A stretch of 64,000 nucleotides of DNA from a bacterium (lineage in GTDB: Bacteria; Spirochaetota; Leptospiria; Leptospirales; Leptonemataceae), in contig JANSYA010000002.1 in NCBI GenBank assembly GCA_024742665.1, forward strand, positions 723,112 to 787,111, read 5' to 3'. The translations under genes were made by a program, and so were the position numbers. Of the stretch, positions 44,328 through 53,066 are shown one piece after another. The notes under the pieces were generated by a model. It searched no databases and was not told where the DNA came from. It was given only the letters and a program-made list of their open reading frames with translations. How positions within the stretch are numbered: the first letter of the stretch is position 1; each line of letters starts with the position of its first letter.

Positions 44328-45362
44328 TTATTCCGCCGCATCTTTCGGAACGTTCTCTGTGTTATATTCTTCGGCGTTGCGTGAATATTTCGCAGAGGTC
44401 GCACTGAGCAGGGGATACATTCTGAATCCGGCAATCCGCTTCCGGTTATCATAATAAGTGGTAAAGTGATAGAATACGAGGGCATGTTCATGTTGTACAA
44501 TTTTGAGAACGGTGACCATTGCGCGACCGCTGTATTTCTTTACTATGAATCGCCATTGCAGCTCTTCGAAATGCTGAATATCGCCGGCCAATTCTACAAC
44601 TTTCGCGTGAGTTTTCTGGAGGCCCCCGACGTTCATTTCTTTTTTAAGGATGTCGGCAAAATAAGTATCATGAACTTTCGCGTATTCTTTTTTCTGCATG
44701 AGGGCCAGCATATGATTCGCCGCTTCGAGTAGAGGGCCGTACGCTTCGACCTCTTCCGTCAACGGCTTTGTCGGCATAGAATGAACCTGGCTTCCGGATA
44801 CGAATTCTTCAGGGTTGTTGCGGCCCCCGACGCTCAATATAAACCAGCTGAATTTGATAATCCGTTTTAGATCGTGTTCAACAAAGCTGAGCGTGTATCT
44901 TACAGTAGCATATTTATGTTCCGCATATTTCGTGCAGTGAATATAGCGTACGCCCTGACGAATTTCGTTCGTGAAAGACCATTGATTCGCCTGGTAAGTT
45001 TCCAGCGGTCCGGTAAAGTTGATCAGCTTCTCGATCTGAAACAAATACCAATCCTTATTGAATTCTTCTTTCAGACGATCGGAGAAGGATTTGTCGTAAA
45101 GAATCTCAATTTCATTTTTCTTGATTTGATCGAGGATGGAATTGGAAGTGGCGAGTGCGGGGGAGTATTCCTGCAGGTCGGGGCCCAGCGCGGATTCCAA
45201 CTCCGGGTTTTCCTGACTGCCAGAATGATGAACGGTCGTATCATCCTGCGGGAATCCATGGATCGCGGCGTCAGTGAACAGGAATACGAATGCGCCCAAA
45301 AGAAGAAGAACGATGGCTCCCGGGCGTTGCGTGAACGCGGTCTTACGAATCATCTTAATCAT
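44328..45362 (-). CDS. Exported or membrane-anchored protein (intact copy of the 50658-51185 pseudogene)
   Basis: 344 residues with a single N-terminal hydrophobic helix (about 17-33), probably a signal sequence or anchor. The remainder is soluble. It holds two similar stretches: LEEYSxA-type text at about 64-150 and LTEEVEAYGPLLEAANHMLALMQKKEYAKVHD at about 205-236, which suggests an internal repeat. Function unknown. A damaged copy is at 50658-51185, and the DNA around both copies is also alike. Confidence 0.77.
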   Translation of the reverse strand: MIKMIRKTAFTQRPGAIVLLLLGAFVFLFTDAAIHGFPQDDTTVHHSGSQENPELESALGPDLQEYSPALATSNSILDQIKKNEIEILYDKSFSDRLKEEFNKDWYLFQIEKLINFTGPLETYQANQWSFTNEIRQGVRYIHCTKYAEHKYATVRYTLSFVEHDLKRIIKFSWFILSVGGRNNPEEFVSGSQVHSMPTKPLTEEVEAYGPLLEAANHMLALMQKKEYAKVHDTYFADILKKEMNVGGLQKTHAKVVELAGDIQHFEELQWRFIVKKYSGRAMVTVLKIVQHEHALVFYHFTTYYDNRKRIAGFRMYPLLSATSAKYSRNAEEYNTENVPKDAAE

Positions 45363-45447
45363 CCAATGACAGAATCACAGTCCGAAACCATGTCAAGTCG
45401 CTCTCGGTGAACCGACTCCATTCACAGACCCACGCGAATCGCCGACG

Positions 45448-45789
45448 CTACACTTCGCACCAGACGGCCATCGCATTGCCGCCGGGTTCTTTGAATTCAA
45501 AACGCCGGCCTCCGGGAAATTCGAAAATCTCTTTCGTAATTTCCGCGCCGGCCGCTTGAACTACGCCCAGCGCCTTTTCCAGATCGTCGGCTTTCAATAC
45601 AATCAGCGGAGGCCGCAAGTCGCCGCGCTCGATTCCGCCGCCGAGACCGGCATCCTGAATATCGCGATAGTCCGGTCCGTACTCTACGAAGTTCCATCCA
45701 AAGGCCCGGGCAAAAAAACTCTGCGTGGCTTCGAGCTCCGGCGATGAAAACTCCACGTAGTCGATCTTCATATTTTCTCTGTCAGTCAT
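45448..45789 (-). CDS. VOC-superfamily protein (glyoxalase/bleomycin-resistance type)
   Basis: 113 residues. One VOC unit: KIDYVEFSSPELEATQSFFARAFGWNFVEYGPDY, then a central strand PLIVLKADDLEKALGVVQAAGAEI, ending FEFKEPGGNAMAVWCE. ATG 45771 is a possible start. It lies between two DNA segments that are adjacent at the duplicated locus around 51.2-51.38 kb, so this gene was either inserted here or deleted there. Confidence 0.85.
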   Translation of the reverse strand: MTDRENMKIDYVEFSSPELEATQSFFARAFGWNFVEYGPDYRDIQDAGLGGGIERGDLRPPLIVLKADDLEKALGVVQAAGAEITKEIFEFPGGRRFEFKEPGGNAMAVWCEV

Positions 45790-45910
45790 ATTCGCTTGCT
45801 CCTCCCATGCAGAGCATTCGTCCGCTTAAAAAGCTATCGAAGGTGAACCGAATTCACTCCCGCGCTCTTTCCGGAAATGCTTCTCACGATTGGGCGGATC
45901 GCTTTGGGCA

Positions 45911-45955
45911 TTGTAAATAAATTATTCGATGCTTGACTGCTTTCAGACGAAAGAT
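45911..45955 (+). repeat. Repeated intergenic element, copy A (promoter-like TTGACT)
   Basis: A stretch of about 45 bases, TTGTAAATAAATTATTCG and onward to TTTCAGACGAAAGAT, matches 51340-51384 with only a few differences. It contains TTGACT at 45933-45938, a good -35 box. Together with the shared CATGTCAAGTCGCTCTCG near 45390 it shows that this locus and the 51.2 kb locus descend from one duplicated segment. The surrounding gap 45790-46065 holds no other gene. Confidence 0.6.
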
Positions 45956-46065
45956 CTCCTCTGCCGATTGTCGCGATGGCCACGGTCGCTGCTGCCCGGC
46001 TCAAGTTTCTTTTCGATACTCCGACTCTTATAAAATCAAAGGGCCCTTTCCCGGCCGGCTTTTGT

Positions 46066-50657: not shown

Positions 50658-51185
50658 TTACTCCGCCGGATCTTTCGAAATAATGACTGTGTTGCCTTCT
50701 TCGTCGGTGTACGAATATTCGACAGAGGGCTCTATCGATTGGGGCAGCATTCGGAATCCGATCACTTGCTTTTGGTTTTCCGGATAAGCGATGATATGAT
50801 GTCGGCGAAATATACGTCATGAACTTTCTTGTAGTTCTTTTTCTGCAGGAGCTCCAGCATATGATTCGCCGCTTTGAGTAGAGAAGCGTAGGCTTTGGCC
50901 TCTTCGGTCAACGGCTTCGCCAGCATCGGTTGCTCCGCGGTTTCGGAAGTCATTACACGCGCTTTTTCAGAACGTTTGTTTTGTTTAGGTTCCCAGTGTA
51001 TCCCGATGAATTTCGGCTTCCATCTCCGGGTTTTCCATAGTACCGGAGCGCTGAATCGTAAATTCATCCCGGGGAAATCCATGGATCGCGGCGTCAGTCA
51101 GCAGAAATACAAACGCGCATAAAAAAAGAGCGATACTCCCGGAGCGCGCCGCGCGCACGGCCTTTCGAATCATACTGATCATCAA
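50658..51185 (-). pseudogene. Decayed copy of the 44328-45362 gene
   Basis: The reading frame is broken into at least three pieces. The first (from 51185) encodes ALFLCAFVFLLTDAAIHGFP, nearly the signal region of the intact gene (LLLGAFVFLFTDAAIHGFP). The second encodes KPLTEEAKAYASLLKAANHM and KNYKKVHDVYFADI. The last encodes ENQKQVIGFRMLP and ends KDPAE at TAA 50658. Compared with the 344-residue intact protein, the middle (about 70-205) and a later stretch (about 235-315) are missing, and the frame shifts. It cannot produce a full-length protein. Confidence 0.82.
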
Positions 51186-51260
51186 TAGAAGCGATCAGAT
51201 TCAAAAGGCATGTCAAGTCGCTCTCGCCGAATTGAGCCCATTTGCAAGCCGGCTCAGGAT

Positions 51261-51290
51261 CAGAATAACAGAATAACAGAATAACAGAAT
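51261..51290 (+). repeat. Tandem 8-bp repeat (CAGAATAA x3, then CAGAAT)
   Basis: CAGAATAA is repeated perfectly at 51261-51268, 51269-51276 and 51277-51284, followed by CAGAAT at 51285-51290. Such a short tandem can change length by slippage. It lies in the intergenic stretch between the pseudogene start and the leader-RNA promoter-like box, and is missing from the otherwise similar locus at 45.4-45.9 kb. Confidence 0.7.
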
Positions 51291-51339
51291 TGCGCAGACG
51301 CACGCAGTTCATACCATATGCAACGGCCCGTTTCGGGGC

Positions 51340-51389
51340 TTGCAAATAATTTATTCGATGCTTGACTATTTTCAGACGAAATATATCGT
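51340..51389 (+). promoter_or_regulatory. Promoter-like element of the leader RNA (copy B of the repeated element)
   Basis: TTGACT at 51362-51367 is a near-consensus -35 box. Sixteen bases later TATCGT at 51384-51389 can serve as a weak -10. TATGAT at 51399 is a better -10 but has no -35 at the right distance. The region 51340-51384 repeats that at 45911-45955. The conserved block suggests a functional promoter for a transcript entering the leader at about 51395. Confidence 0.45.
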
Positions 51390-51394
51390 CTCAT

Positions 51395-51530
51395 CCGTTA
51401 TGATTCTCAGCCGGAACAAATACACAGTGAAGAATCTCGGAGCAATGCATGCTCGGAGGGGGATCCTGTAGTATTTTATCAGTTCCAGGCTACAAACCTC
51501 CTCCGCCACTGCGCCGAGGAGGTTTTTTTG
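51395..51530 (+). ncRNA. Candidate leader RNA / transcription attenuator of the ATP-grasp gene
   Basis: About 135 bases with two exclusive foldings. In the terminator form the stem described at 51494-51529 is made. In the alternative form CGGAGGGGG (51454-51462) pairs with CCTCCTCCG (51497-51505), nine contiguous pairs including one G-U, destroying the terminator's 5' arm. A small hairpin GAGCA/TGCTC lies at 51440-51454. The first strand also sits inside a short reading frame, ATG 51445 to TAG 51469 (MHARRGIL), preceded by GGAG. Translation could therefore control the switch. No known riboswitch class recognised. Confidence 0.55.
51494..51529 (+). terminator. Intrinsic terminator upstream of the ATP-grasp gene
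   Basis: Arm AAACCTCCTC (51494-51503) pairs perfectly with GAGGAGGTTT (51516-51525) around a 12-base loop. Seven Ts (51523-51529) follow the GC-rich stem. It ends 48 bases before the ATP-grasp GTG, with no forward gene upstream that would need it, so it probably attenuates rather than ends a gene. Confidence 0.85.
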
Positions 51531-51576
51531 TGCCTGAATAATTCAAAAATCAAGGCTGAGCTGAAAGGAGAAAATC

Positions 51577-52383
51577 GTGAACCGTGAGAGAACACTGATT
51601 GTTGGACTGGATGAACCGGAATATTCTGAAATTCAGGACCGAATCGATGGAATGAGCGTGGCCTATGAATATCTGCCGGAGATTTTTCTCCGGGACGGAG
51701 AGCTGTACGTCGAGAGTCGCACGCATACCGGGCGCTTTTTGAAAGTCGATCGGGTGATCTATCACGGAATCTACGAAGATGATTTTGATTTTCTGACCGC
51801 CCTGGCCTTATGGCGCGGCCCGTGTTTGCCCGACGCGATGGGCATGGTCGATATGCGATTGCGACATTCGGGACTGGCGCGCGCTATTCGCGTATCGCGC
51901 TTCGGCCAGATGCCGAGAGGTTTTTCGATCGGCGACCGGAGCTTCTCTTCGGACGCGGAGATCGTCGCGAAGTGGGGCAACTGGCACTGCGGCGAAAACA
52001 AACATCTATTCAGCGGCGGATTCACGCCCCCGGAGACCGCGGTCTACGAACCGTTTATAGAGGGCGAAGCCGTGCGCATCGCTCTGGTCGGCGAAGCGGC
52101 GTGGCAGATTCGACTGGCCGGCGACGGCTGGCTGAAATCGATTCATGACGATAGAGCCGGCGAGATGGAGATGGACCCGGAGCTGTTGGAAGATACCCGG
52201 AACATTGCCCGGGCCTTTCAGCTGGCGACGGTCGGCGTGGATTATATGGTTGCGCACACGGGCGAAAGACATCTACTCGAAGTGAATCATATTCCAAACG
52301 TCACAGTCTTTCCGTTTATGCGAAAGGCCTTTATCGAACTGGCGGCGGATTGGTGCGCGGGCGAAACGCCGGCCAGGATCTAG
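51577..52383 (+). CDS. ATP-grasp-type protein (RimK-like fold), unknown substrate
   Basis: 268 residues from GTG 51577, with AAAGGAG close upstream. The C-terminal half has the ATP-grasp pattern: VYEPFIEGEAVRIALVG, then AAWQIRLAGDGWLKSIH, and VGVDYMVAHTGERHLLEVN near 224-242. Here D and the final E-x-N are the usual magnesium ligands. The N-terminal half is like the pre-ATP-grasp domain of RimK or MvdD-type ligases. It should join a carboxylate to an amine with ATP, perhaps modifying a peptide or protein. It is preceded by the attenuator-like leader. Confidence 0.75.
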   Translation: MNRERTLIVGLDEPEYSEIQDRIDGMSVAYEYLPEIFLRDGELYVESRTHTGRFLKVDRVIYHGIYEDDFDFLTALALWRGPCLPDAMGMVDMRLRHSGLARAIRVSRFGQMPRGFSIGDRSFSSDAEIVAKWGNWHCGENKHLFSGGFTPPETAVYEPFIEGEAVRIALVGEAAWQIRLAGDGWLKSIHDDRAGEMEMDPELLEDTRNIARAFQLATVGVDYMVAHTGERHLLEVNHIPNVTVFPFMRKAFIELAADWCAGETPARI

Positions 52384-52390
52384 AAGCGCC

Positions 52391-52418
52391 GATGCCGGAT
52401 TCGAAAGGATCCGGCATC
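52391..52418. repeat. Perfect 10-bp inverted repeat between two genes
   Basis: GATGCCGGAT (52391-52400) and ATCCGGCATC (52409-52418) flank the loop TCGAAAGG. No T-run follows, so it is not a classical terminator. It could stabilise or process the mRNA between the ATP-grasp gene and the next membrane-protein gene, or slow translation of the latter. Confidence 0.65.
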
Positions 52419-52439
52419 GAACGACCAGGCGAAGCGATC

Positions 52440-53066
52440 ATGCGAACACAAAGACAATCTGACGAATCCGAGAATCCATATGCGACGACGGCGACCGCTT
52501 ATATTGGAAACAGTAAGCAACCTCTGCTGGTTTCGATTTTACGCGGATCGTATATCCTTCTGTGGCTGGTCGCACTTGGCACGAGCCTGACGCGCAATCT
52601 CGGGTTCGTCACGATTGCCGAAAACAAATCCATGTACGACGGGCTGTGGATGCTTGGCGCGCTTGCGAATCTGGGAATCCTGCTGTATATGTTCCACTAT
52701 ACTCTGTCGCGATTGTTGCTCGCGCACATATTGTTGTGGGGGATGTACGCGACTTTCACATTCCTGATGGTTATCGGAATTCACGACGTCCTGCCGCCGC
52801 GGCAGCTGTTTCTTGCGAGCAACTTTCTCTGGCCGATCGTTGTCTGGCGCTTGCGGGCCCGGAATCCATCGCACCGTTTTATGCTGCGAGCGACCGCGAC
52901 TATAAGCATGGCATACCTCTTGACATACGCGGTTCCGGACCTTTCCGCGCAGTCGCCCGTTATTGCTATGATATTAATACTGGCGTACGGGCTCAATGTT
53001 CTTGCGCGGACAGTGGTGCTCACGCCTTATTGCTTTCCCGATCTTTATCCTGAAAATAAAAGATAG
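52440..53066 (+). CDS. Polytopic membrane protein, unknown function
   Basis: 208 residues from ATG 52440; the open frame from 52350 overlaps the preceding gene and the inverted repeat. About 30 polar residues are followed by five or six hydrophobic helices spanning about 32-190. No family recognised. It lies 56 bases after the ATP-grasp gene and likely belongs to the same leader-controlled transcript. Confidence 0.72.
   Translation: MRTQRQSDESENPYATTATAYIGNSKQPLLVSILRGSYILLWLVALGTSLTRNLGFVTIAENKSMYDGLWMLGALANLGILLYMFHYTLSRLLLAHILLWGMYATFTFLMVIGIHDVLPPRQLFLASNFLWPIVVWRLRARNPSHRFMLRATATISMAYLLTYAVPDLSAQSPVIAMILILAYGLNVLARTVVLTPYCFPDLYPENKR

What the first reader, a model, noticed from the sequence alone, without database searches (positions are those of the whole stretch)
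51362..51576. Attenuator-like leader RNA in front of an ATP-grasp gene
Seen directly: a promoter-like TTGACT, a perfect 10-bp GC-rich terminator stem with seven Ts (51494-51529), and an upstream strand (51454-51462) able to pair over nine bases with the terminator's 5' arm (51497-51505). These two helices cannot coexist. The strand lies in a mini-ORF (ATG 51445 to TAG 51469, MHARRGIL, with adjacent Arg codons CGG AGG), so a translating ribosome would block the alternative helix and favour termination. No forward gene lies upstream that needs a terminator. I do not recognise a known riboswitch. The regulated genes encode an ATP-grasp ligase and a membrane protein. This is my best candidate for a new regulatory system.
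Basis: partly seen in the sequence, partly recalled or inferred. Interest (0 to 1): 0.78.

Follow-up and report, generated by a model that had tools for sequence, protein, structure and literature searches.

The report
Attenuator-like leader before ATP-grasp gene
In a bacterium that is likely an uncultured relative of Leptospira, a hairpin with the form of a transcription stop signal sits about 50 bases in front of an enzyme gene, and the same RNA can pair in a second, competing way that would likely let transcription continue; this is probably an ordinary type of gene switch, and no related leader was found that could confirm it.

Summary
The observed features are real. The terminator (51494-51529) has the form of this genome's other terminators. 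The competing 9-bp pairing (51454-51462 with 51497-51505) is unusual: 21 of 2000 shuffled leaders reach it, and among 48 intergenic terminators in a 1.99-Mb sample of the genome only this one has it. The interpretation changes in three ways. (1) The mini-ORF at 51445 is the tail of a longer open frame, e.g. from ATG 51400. (2) Without a ribosome the antiterminator strand is partly held in an upstream hairpin (51409-51491), so termination is the default; in folding models only a ribosome on codons 51400-51439 frees it. (3) TTGACT lies in a duplicated block whose -10 is not conserved, and the minus-strand 'gene' upstream is a decayed copy. The ATP-grasp gene is absent from 99 relatives and no other copy of the leader was found, so covariation cannot be tested. 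Three of the 47 other terminators fold as switch-like, two of them at ordinary gene ends. Best reading: a ribosome-dependent attenuator of known kind, confidence 0.38. Main rival: a short stand-alone transcript with its own terminator.

The parts
51324..51391 (+). Promoter-like block (TTGACT 51362-51367, TATCGT 51384-51389; palindrome AGACGA/TCGTCT 51374-51391); last 68 nt of a duplicated segment, other copy at 45895-45962
   Evidence: the match is not above chance and the -10 is TCTCCT in the other copy
51400..51471 (+).
   Evidence: codon score -1.9 over 23 codons, not gene-like; translation untested
51409..51491 (+). Long protector hairpin that pairs 5 of the 9 bases of 51454-51462 (51454, 51456-51459)
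   Evidence: 51396-51490 z -3.6, 1 of 300 shuffles as stable
51454..51462 (+). Antiterminator strand CGGAGGGGG
51494..51529 (+). Intrinsic-terminator-like hairpin and T run; 5' arm 51497-51505 is the partner of the antiterminator strand
51449..51541 (+). Second candidate leader ORF, 30 codons, reading through the terminator with KPPPP in its 5' arm
   Evidence: Shine-Dalgarno energy -5.8; codon score -9.9
51577..52383 (+). ATP-grasp-type gene, GTG start, Shine-Dalgarno AAGGAG 51565-51570
   Evidence: own protein has no Pfam or NCBIfam match; 6 of the 120 listed relatives carry PF08443 and/or PF14397
52440..53066 (+). Downstream hydrophobic protein gene (208 aa), possibly co-transcribed; start chosen at ATG 52440
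   Evidence: only an identical sequence found in the protein database; membrane nature judged by eye

Best explanation
The leader 51396-51576 carries a hairpin with the form of an intrinsic terminator about 50 nt before the ATP-grasp gene, and it likely works as a ribosome-controlled attenuator that is off by default. Three pairings compete: the long hairpin 51409-51491 partly holds 51454-51462; freed, that strand can pair with 51497-51505 (antiterminator); otherwise 51494-51503 pairs with 51516-51525 and transcription would stop near 51529. The inferred switch is a ribosome on the near-leaderless 23-codon ORF from ATG 51400. Held on its first 14 codons it would open the protector and free the antiterminator (read-through); finishing at TAG 51469, or absent, it would leave termination. 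The ORF has no run of one regulatory codon, so the signal would be slow or blocked translation in general rather than one amino acid. Shown by calls: the terminator form, the pairings, the open frame and the modelled competition. Inferred: transcription start, translation, conditionality, kinetics, and co-transcription of the two genes.
For: Strong hairpin with T run of the same form as the genome's gene-end terminators. Position: of 48 intergenic terminators in 1.99 Mb, 38 follow a co-directional gene (33 of these within 124 nt) and 7, this one included, stand before a gene without one. Longest upstream pairing of the 48 (9 bp) and highest ratio of antiterminator to terminator energy (1.01; next 0.99, 0.99, 0.95). 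Three-state behaviour in ribosome-mask folding: 0.87-0.99 antiterminator for P-site codons 51400-51439, at most 0.01 from 51442 to the stop, 0.05-0.32 without ribosome; 1 of 300 shuffled leaders behaves so. Transcripts starting 0-10 nt before the start codon are reported as common in L. interrogans (PMC5243855, abstract and passages), which makes a start at 51400 without Shine-Dalgarno thinkable.
Against: No relative carries the leader, so no covariation or conservation. Three other terminators of the 48 meet the same three-state criterion, two at ordinary gene ends and one beside a tRNA gene, and this leader ranks third, not first, for switching range; 22 of 300 shuffled leaders reach its masked maximum. 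Once complete, the terminator wins at equilibrium with every ribosome position on the 51400 ORF (0.92-1.0 at RNA end 51525), so read-through would have to be kinetic, which was not modelled. The promoter match is at chance level and its -10 is not conserved in the duplicate. The ORF at 51400 has no Shine-Dalgarno (+1.2) and un-gene-like codons. A stop codon 23 nt before a stem (39 nt to its middle) is also the normal spacing of a gene end here. A leader terminator is not a trait of the gene family.
Confidence: 0.38

Rival explanations
1. A short stand-alone transcription unit: an RNA of about 130 nt from near 51396 to 51529, either a small RNA or the message of the small ORF, with an unconditional terminator; the ATP-grasp gene is expressed from a weak promoter of its own or by leak-through.
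For: Two stable hairpins, the second with a T run (z -4.60, 0 of 200 shuffles as stable); the small ORF's stop lies 39 nt before the middle of the stem, within the usual 30-124 nt of gene ends in this genome; completed terminator wins in nearly every modelled state; switch-like folding also at gene-end terminators.
Against: Does not explain the 9-bp alternative pairing (1 of 48); ORF codons not gene-like; no Rfam match; the promoter scan found no plus-strand promoter-like site between the terminator and the gene, though such scans are weak.
Confidence: 0.32
2. An ordinary or relic terminator: it ends transcription of the forward genes up to 50631, from which it was parted by the duplicated block, or it came along with the ATP-grasp gene as the end signal of a lost neighbour; the alternative pairing is chance.
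For: Unique sequence begins at the edge of the duplicated block at 51391/51392; the minus-strand gene in between is decayed; in other organisms terminators before this gene mostly belong to the co-directional gene upstream; the gene is absent from 99 relatives.
Against: 863 nt from the last called forward gene; 33 of the 38 gene-end terminators lie within 124 nt of their gene and none beyond 405 nt; the pairing is at about the 1% level.
Confidence: 0.2
3. Read-through by a ribosome inside the terminator: ORF 51449-51541 is translated, and a ribosome slowed at Lys-Pro-Pro-Pro-Pro, encoded by the terminator's own 5' arm, would keep the hairpin from forming.
For: Best Shine-Dalgarno energy of the small-ORF starts tested (-5.8; the strongest quarter of 1216 called genes is at -5.0 or below; anti-SD recalled; gene starts were taken as the most upstream start, so gene values are underestimates); modelled terminator pairing 0 for P-site codons 51488-51530 at RNA end 51525.
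Against: Codon score -9.9 over 30 codons; a CCTCCTCCGCCA arm reads as prolines in one of three frames anyway; Shine-Dalgarno and start lie in the apical part of the protector hairpin; no relatives. EF-P work in E. coli reports the other sign: poor polyproline synthesis favours termination (PMC5021804, abstract).
Confidence: 0.05

Closest known systems
trp/his-type leader-peptide attenuators (recalled; the general kind is also described in passages of PMC7815308)
   Same: Three competing pairings (protector, antiterminator, terminator) with an ORF over the first strand and its stop next to the second; modelled outcome early pause = read-through, completion or no translation = termination
   Different: No cluster of one regulatory codon, no Shine-Dalgarno at the needed start, no conservation, downstream gene not a known amino-acid biosynthesis gene
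Structured uORF motifs from comparative searches, e.g. uORFC-8-2 before cysS (PMC8632094, passages)
   Same: Ribosome stalling in a leader ORF as the proposed switch
   Different: Those rest on many examples (145 for uORFC-8-2); here there is one
5'-UTR-derived small RNAs made by premature termination in E. coli (PMC7815308, passages)
   Same: A short RNA ending at a terminator in front of a gene is what either main reading predicts
   Different: No RNA data here
EF-P, polyproline and intrinsic terminators (PMC5021804, abstract)
   Same: Links proline-run translation to terminator read-through
   Different: There the terminators follow the proline run and stalling promotes termination; here the prolines would lie inside the stem

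Membership tests
trp/his-type ribosome-mediated attenuator | Mutually exclusive terminator and antiterminator in the leader | tested here: met
trp/his-type ribosome-mediated attenuator | Protector strand overlapped by a leader ORF, giving three states | tested here: met
   Modelled with ribosome masks; but 3 of the 47 other terminators also meet the criterion
trp/his-type ribosome-mediated attenuator | Run of codons for the regulating amino acid in the leader ORF | tested here: not met
   Translation shows no such run in the 51400 frame
trp/his-type ribosome-mediated attenuator | Leader ORF is translated | not testable with these tools
   No Shine-Dalgarno at 51400; codon scores not gene-like
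trp/his-type ribosome-mediated attenuator | Conservation or covariation of the leader in relatives | tested here: inconclusive
   No other copy to align
Known riboswitch or Rfam leader family | Match above the family threshold | tested here: not met
   (0 matches at gathering; at E<=10 only chance matches far below threshold)
Stand-alone small RNA with intrinsic terminator | Own promoter and discrete transcript ending at the terminator | not testable with these tools
   Promoter-like match only

The most novel reading that the evidence does not exclude
A terminator whose own 5' arm encodes a polyproline pause: a ribosome on ORF 51449-51541 is slowed at Lys-Pro-Pro-Pro-Pro exactly inside the stem and so lets RNA polymerase through, making ATP-grasp expression respond to proline supply or EF-P activity.
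Probability: 0.05. Interest if true: 0.6.

Novelty: new member of a known kind. Interest (0 to 1): 0.3.

Why it matters
If it works as inferred, it is a leader-ORF attenuator in a Leptospirales lineage in front of a widespread ATP-grasp family to which these searches gave no specific function; knowing what slows the leader ribosome would hint at what the enzyme does. As it stands it is a single unconserved case of a familiar design. The controls are also a caution: switch-like alternative folding appears at some ordinary gene-end terminators too.

Tried and rejected
Multi-copy or mobile element: of 13 matches to 51340-51580 in the own genome only itself and the duplicate of 51340-51391 are significant, the rest E >= 0.19; the exact stem pattern occurs once in the genome and not in viral contigs; no match of 51300-51600 in plasmids or phages. 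In the family, 3 of 21 other genomes gave only 18-39-nt matches at E 0.013-0.09, taken as chance.

Rfam family: none. Leader conserved with the gene family: 12 of 80 loci from other organisms have a terminator-like hairpin in the 300 nt before the gene; nine were called behind a co-directional gene, and L023, called divergent, has the co-directional ORF of its close relatives. Left are L064 (weak, 237 nt away) and L079, where the ATP-grasp frame itself is open across the hairpin, so that its start is uncertain. Viral relatives of the gene: none confirmed. Solved-structure relatives: none at E <= 0.01. Conserved promoter: the duplicated 68 nt are 81% identical (87% over 52 nt) against 77-78% for the two long aligned stretches of the decayed gene, so selection on it is not shown. 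Amino-acid sensor: no codon run. The first terminator scan was too loose (173 of 218 hits in genes) and was replaced, 36 of 84 hits lay in called genes and were dropped before the count of 48. Genes were called by a simple script, so some classes may be wrong.

Full report
WHAT IS THERE. The terminator hairpin is strong: -17.7 kcal/mol for 51494-51525, -23.9 for the extended form 51486-51535, which none of 300 shuffles equals. In 1,987,111 bases of the same genome (contig C18 whole, parts of C9 and C23) 84 hairpins met one strict definition; 36 lay in called genes and were set aside. Of the 48 intergenic ones, 38 follow a co-directional gene (33 of them within 124 nt), 7 stand before a gene with no co-directional neighbour upstream, and 3 have neither. 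Two of the seven stand before tRNA genes. So the organism carries such terminators mainly at gene ends, and this one is in the minority leader position. Gene calls are from a simple script.

THE ALTERNATIVE PAIRING. 51454-51462 with 51497-51505 is the only one of the 48 that reaches 9 bp, and the ratio of its energy to that of the terminator is the highest (1.01), though two others reach 0.99 and one 0.95. Shuffled leaders reach 9 bp in 21 of 2000 cases and real 95-nt window segments in 7 of 1318. It is unusual at about the 1% level, not beyond doubt.

HOW IT WOULD SWITCH. In the free leader, 5 of the 9 bases of 51454-51462 are paired inside the long hairpin 51409-51491. Without a ribosome the antiterminator has probability 0.12 at RNA end 51506, 0.13 at 51510, 0.05 at 51514, 0.32 at 51518 and 0 at 51522, where the terminator has 1.0. 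With a 29-nt ribosome mask moved along ORF 51400-51471, the antiterminator at 51506-51518 is 0.87-0.99 for P-site codons 51400 to 51439 and at most 0.01 from 51442 to the stop codon. This is the classical pattern: early pause gives read-through, completion or no translation gives termination. At RNA end 51525 the terminator wins for every mask on that ORF (0.92-1.0), so any read-through is kinetic; kinetics were not modelled.

CONTROL. The same masking measure on the 48 terminators put this leader third for switching range. Four of 48 met a three-state criterion: this one, two at ordinary gene ends and one before a tRNA gene. Of 300 shuffled leaders, 22 reached the same masked maximum and 1 showed all three states. 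Folding alone therefore cannot prove regulation.

THE ORFs. The start at 51400 has no Shine-Dalgarno but would be near-leaderless if transcription begins around 51396. In L. interrogans, primary start sites 0-10 nt before the start codon are reported as common; the abstract speaks of the majority, the discussion of about 440 messages with less than 10 nt (PMC5243855, abstract and passages). The best Shine-Dalgarno among the small-ORF starts tested belongs to ATG 51449 (-5.8), whose ORF reads through the terminator with four prolines in its 5' arm. Neither ORF has gene-like codon usage (-1.9 over 23 codons and -9.9 over 30, against a mean of +0.28 per codon in 200 called genes).

SURROUNDINGS. 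The window is from a 6.03-Mb genome whose ribosomal protein L2 is 96% identical to that of a 'Leptospirales bacterium' MAG. A 344-codon minus-strand gene (44328-45362) has a decayed copy at about 50661-51182: three parts align, in more than one frame, one with a stop. The duplication ends at 51391 (45962 in the other copy) and contains TTGACT; no further similarity follows. The ATP-grasp gene is in 0 of 99 relatives; the 206-codon gene upstream and the duplicated gene are each in 0 of 21 other family members, so this is a lineage-specific stretch. ATP-grasp relatives are many elsewhere (1040 proteins, best 120 listed; 80 loci kept of 93, largely Bacteroidota, Planctomycetota and Chloroflexi by their titles). 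Horizontal gain is an inference.

OTHER ORGANISMS. Of the 80 loci, 12 had a terminator-like hairpin in the 300 nt before the gene; after L023 is read like its close relatives, ten follow a co-directional gene, one (L064) is weak and distant, and one (L079) is leader-like with an uncertain gene start. A leader terminator is not a trait of this gene family.

LITERATURE. Two searches on leader attenuation and polyproline and one on ATP-grasp with attenuator terms listed nothing on a leader of this gene family; listings, one abstract and passages were seen, no whole paper.

VERDICT. A terminator-like hairpin and an unusual competing pairing are there. The most likely use is an attenuator of a known kind, but it is unconserved as far as could be searched and has serious ordinary rivals.

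Noticed in passing
window 44328-45962 and 50661-51391: Segmental duplication: a 344-codon minus-strand gene plus the block upstream, with a decayed, partly deleted copy just before the ATP-grasp gene.
   Followed up: partly
window 52390-52419: Perfect 11-bp inverted repeat (CGATGCCGGAT / ATCCGGCATCG) between the ATP-grasp gene and the downstream gene, without a T run; read by eye.
   Followed up: no
window 51261-51290: Short tandem repeat of CAGAATAA (period 8, almost four copies) upstream of the promoter-like block; read by eye.
   Followed up: no
window 51374-51391: Palindrome AGACGA-AATATA-TCGTCT overlapping the -10-like hexamer; broken in the duplicate copy at 45945-45962. Operator-like, but may be chance.
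   Followed up: no
L079:3180-3470: In an uncultured proteobacterium the ATP-grasp relative also has a strong terminator-like hairpin about 55 nt before its presumed start, with a short ORF behind an AAAGGAGG further upstream; the gene's start is uncertain there.
   Followed up: partly
window 52440-53066: Hydrophobic 208-residue protein with only an identical sequence found in a 5.8-billion-protein search: an orphan.
   Followed up: partly
G000 contig C18:647813-647851 (-) and C9:294656-294697 (+): Two other strong terminator-like hairpins in leader position, 118 and 208 nt before genes, without a 9-bp antiterminator.
   Followed up: no
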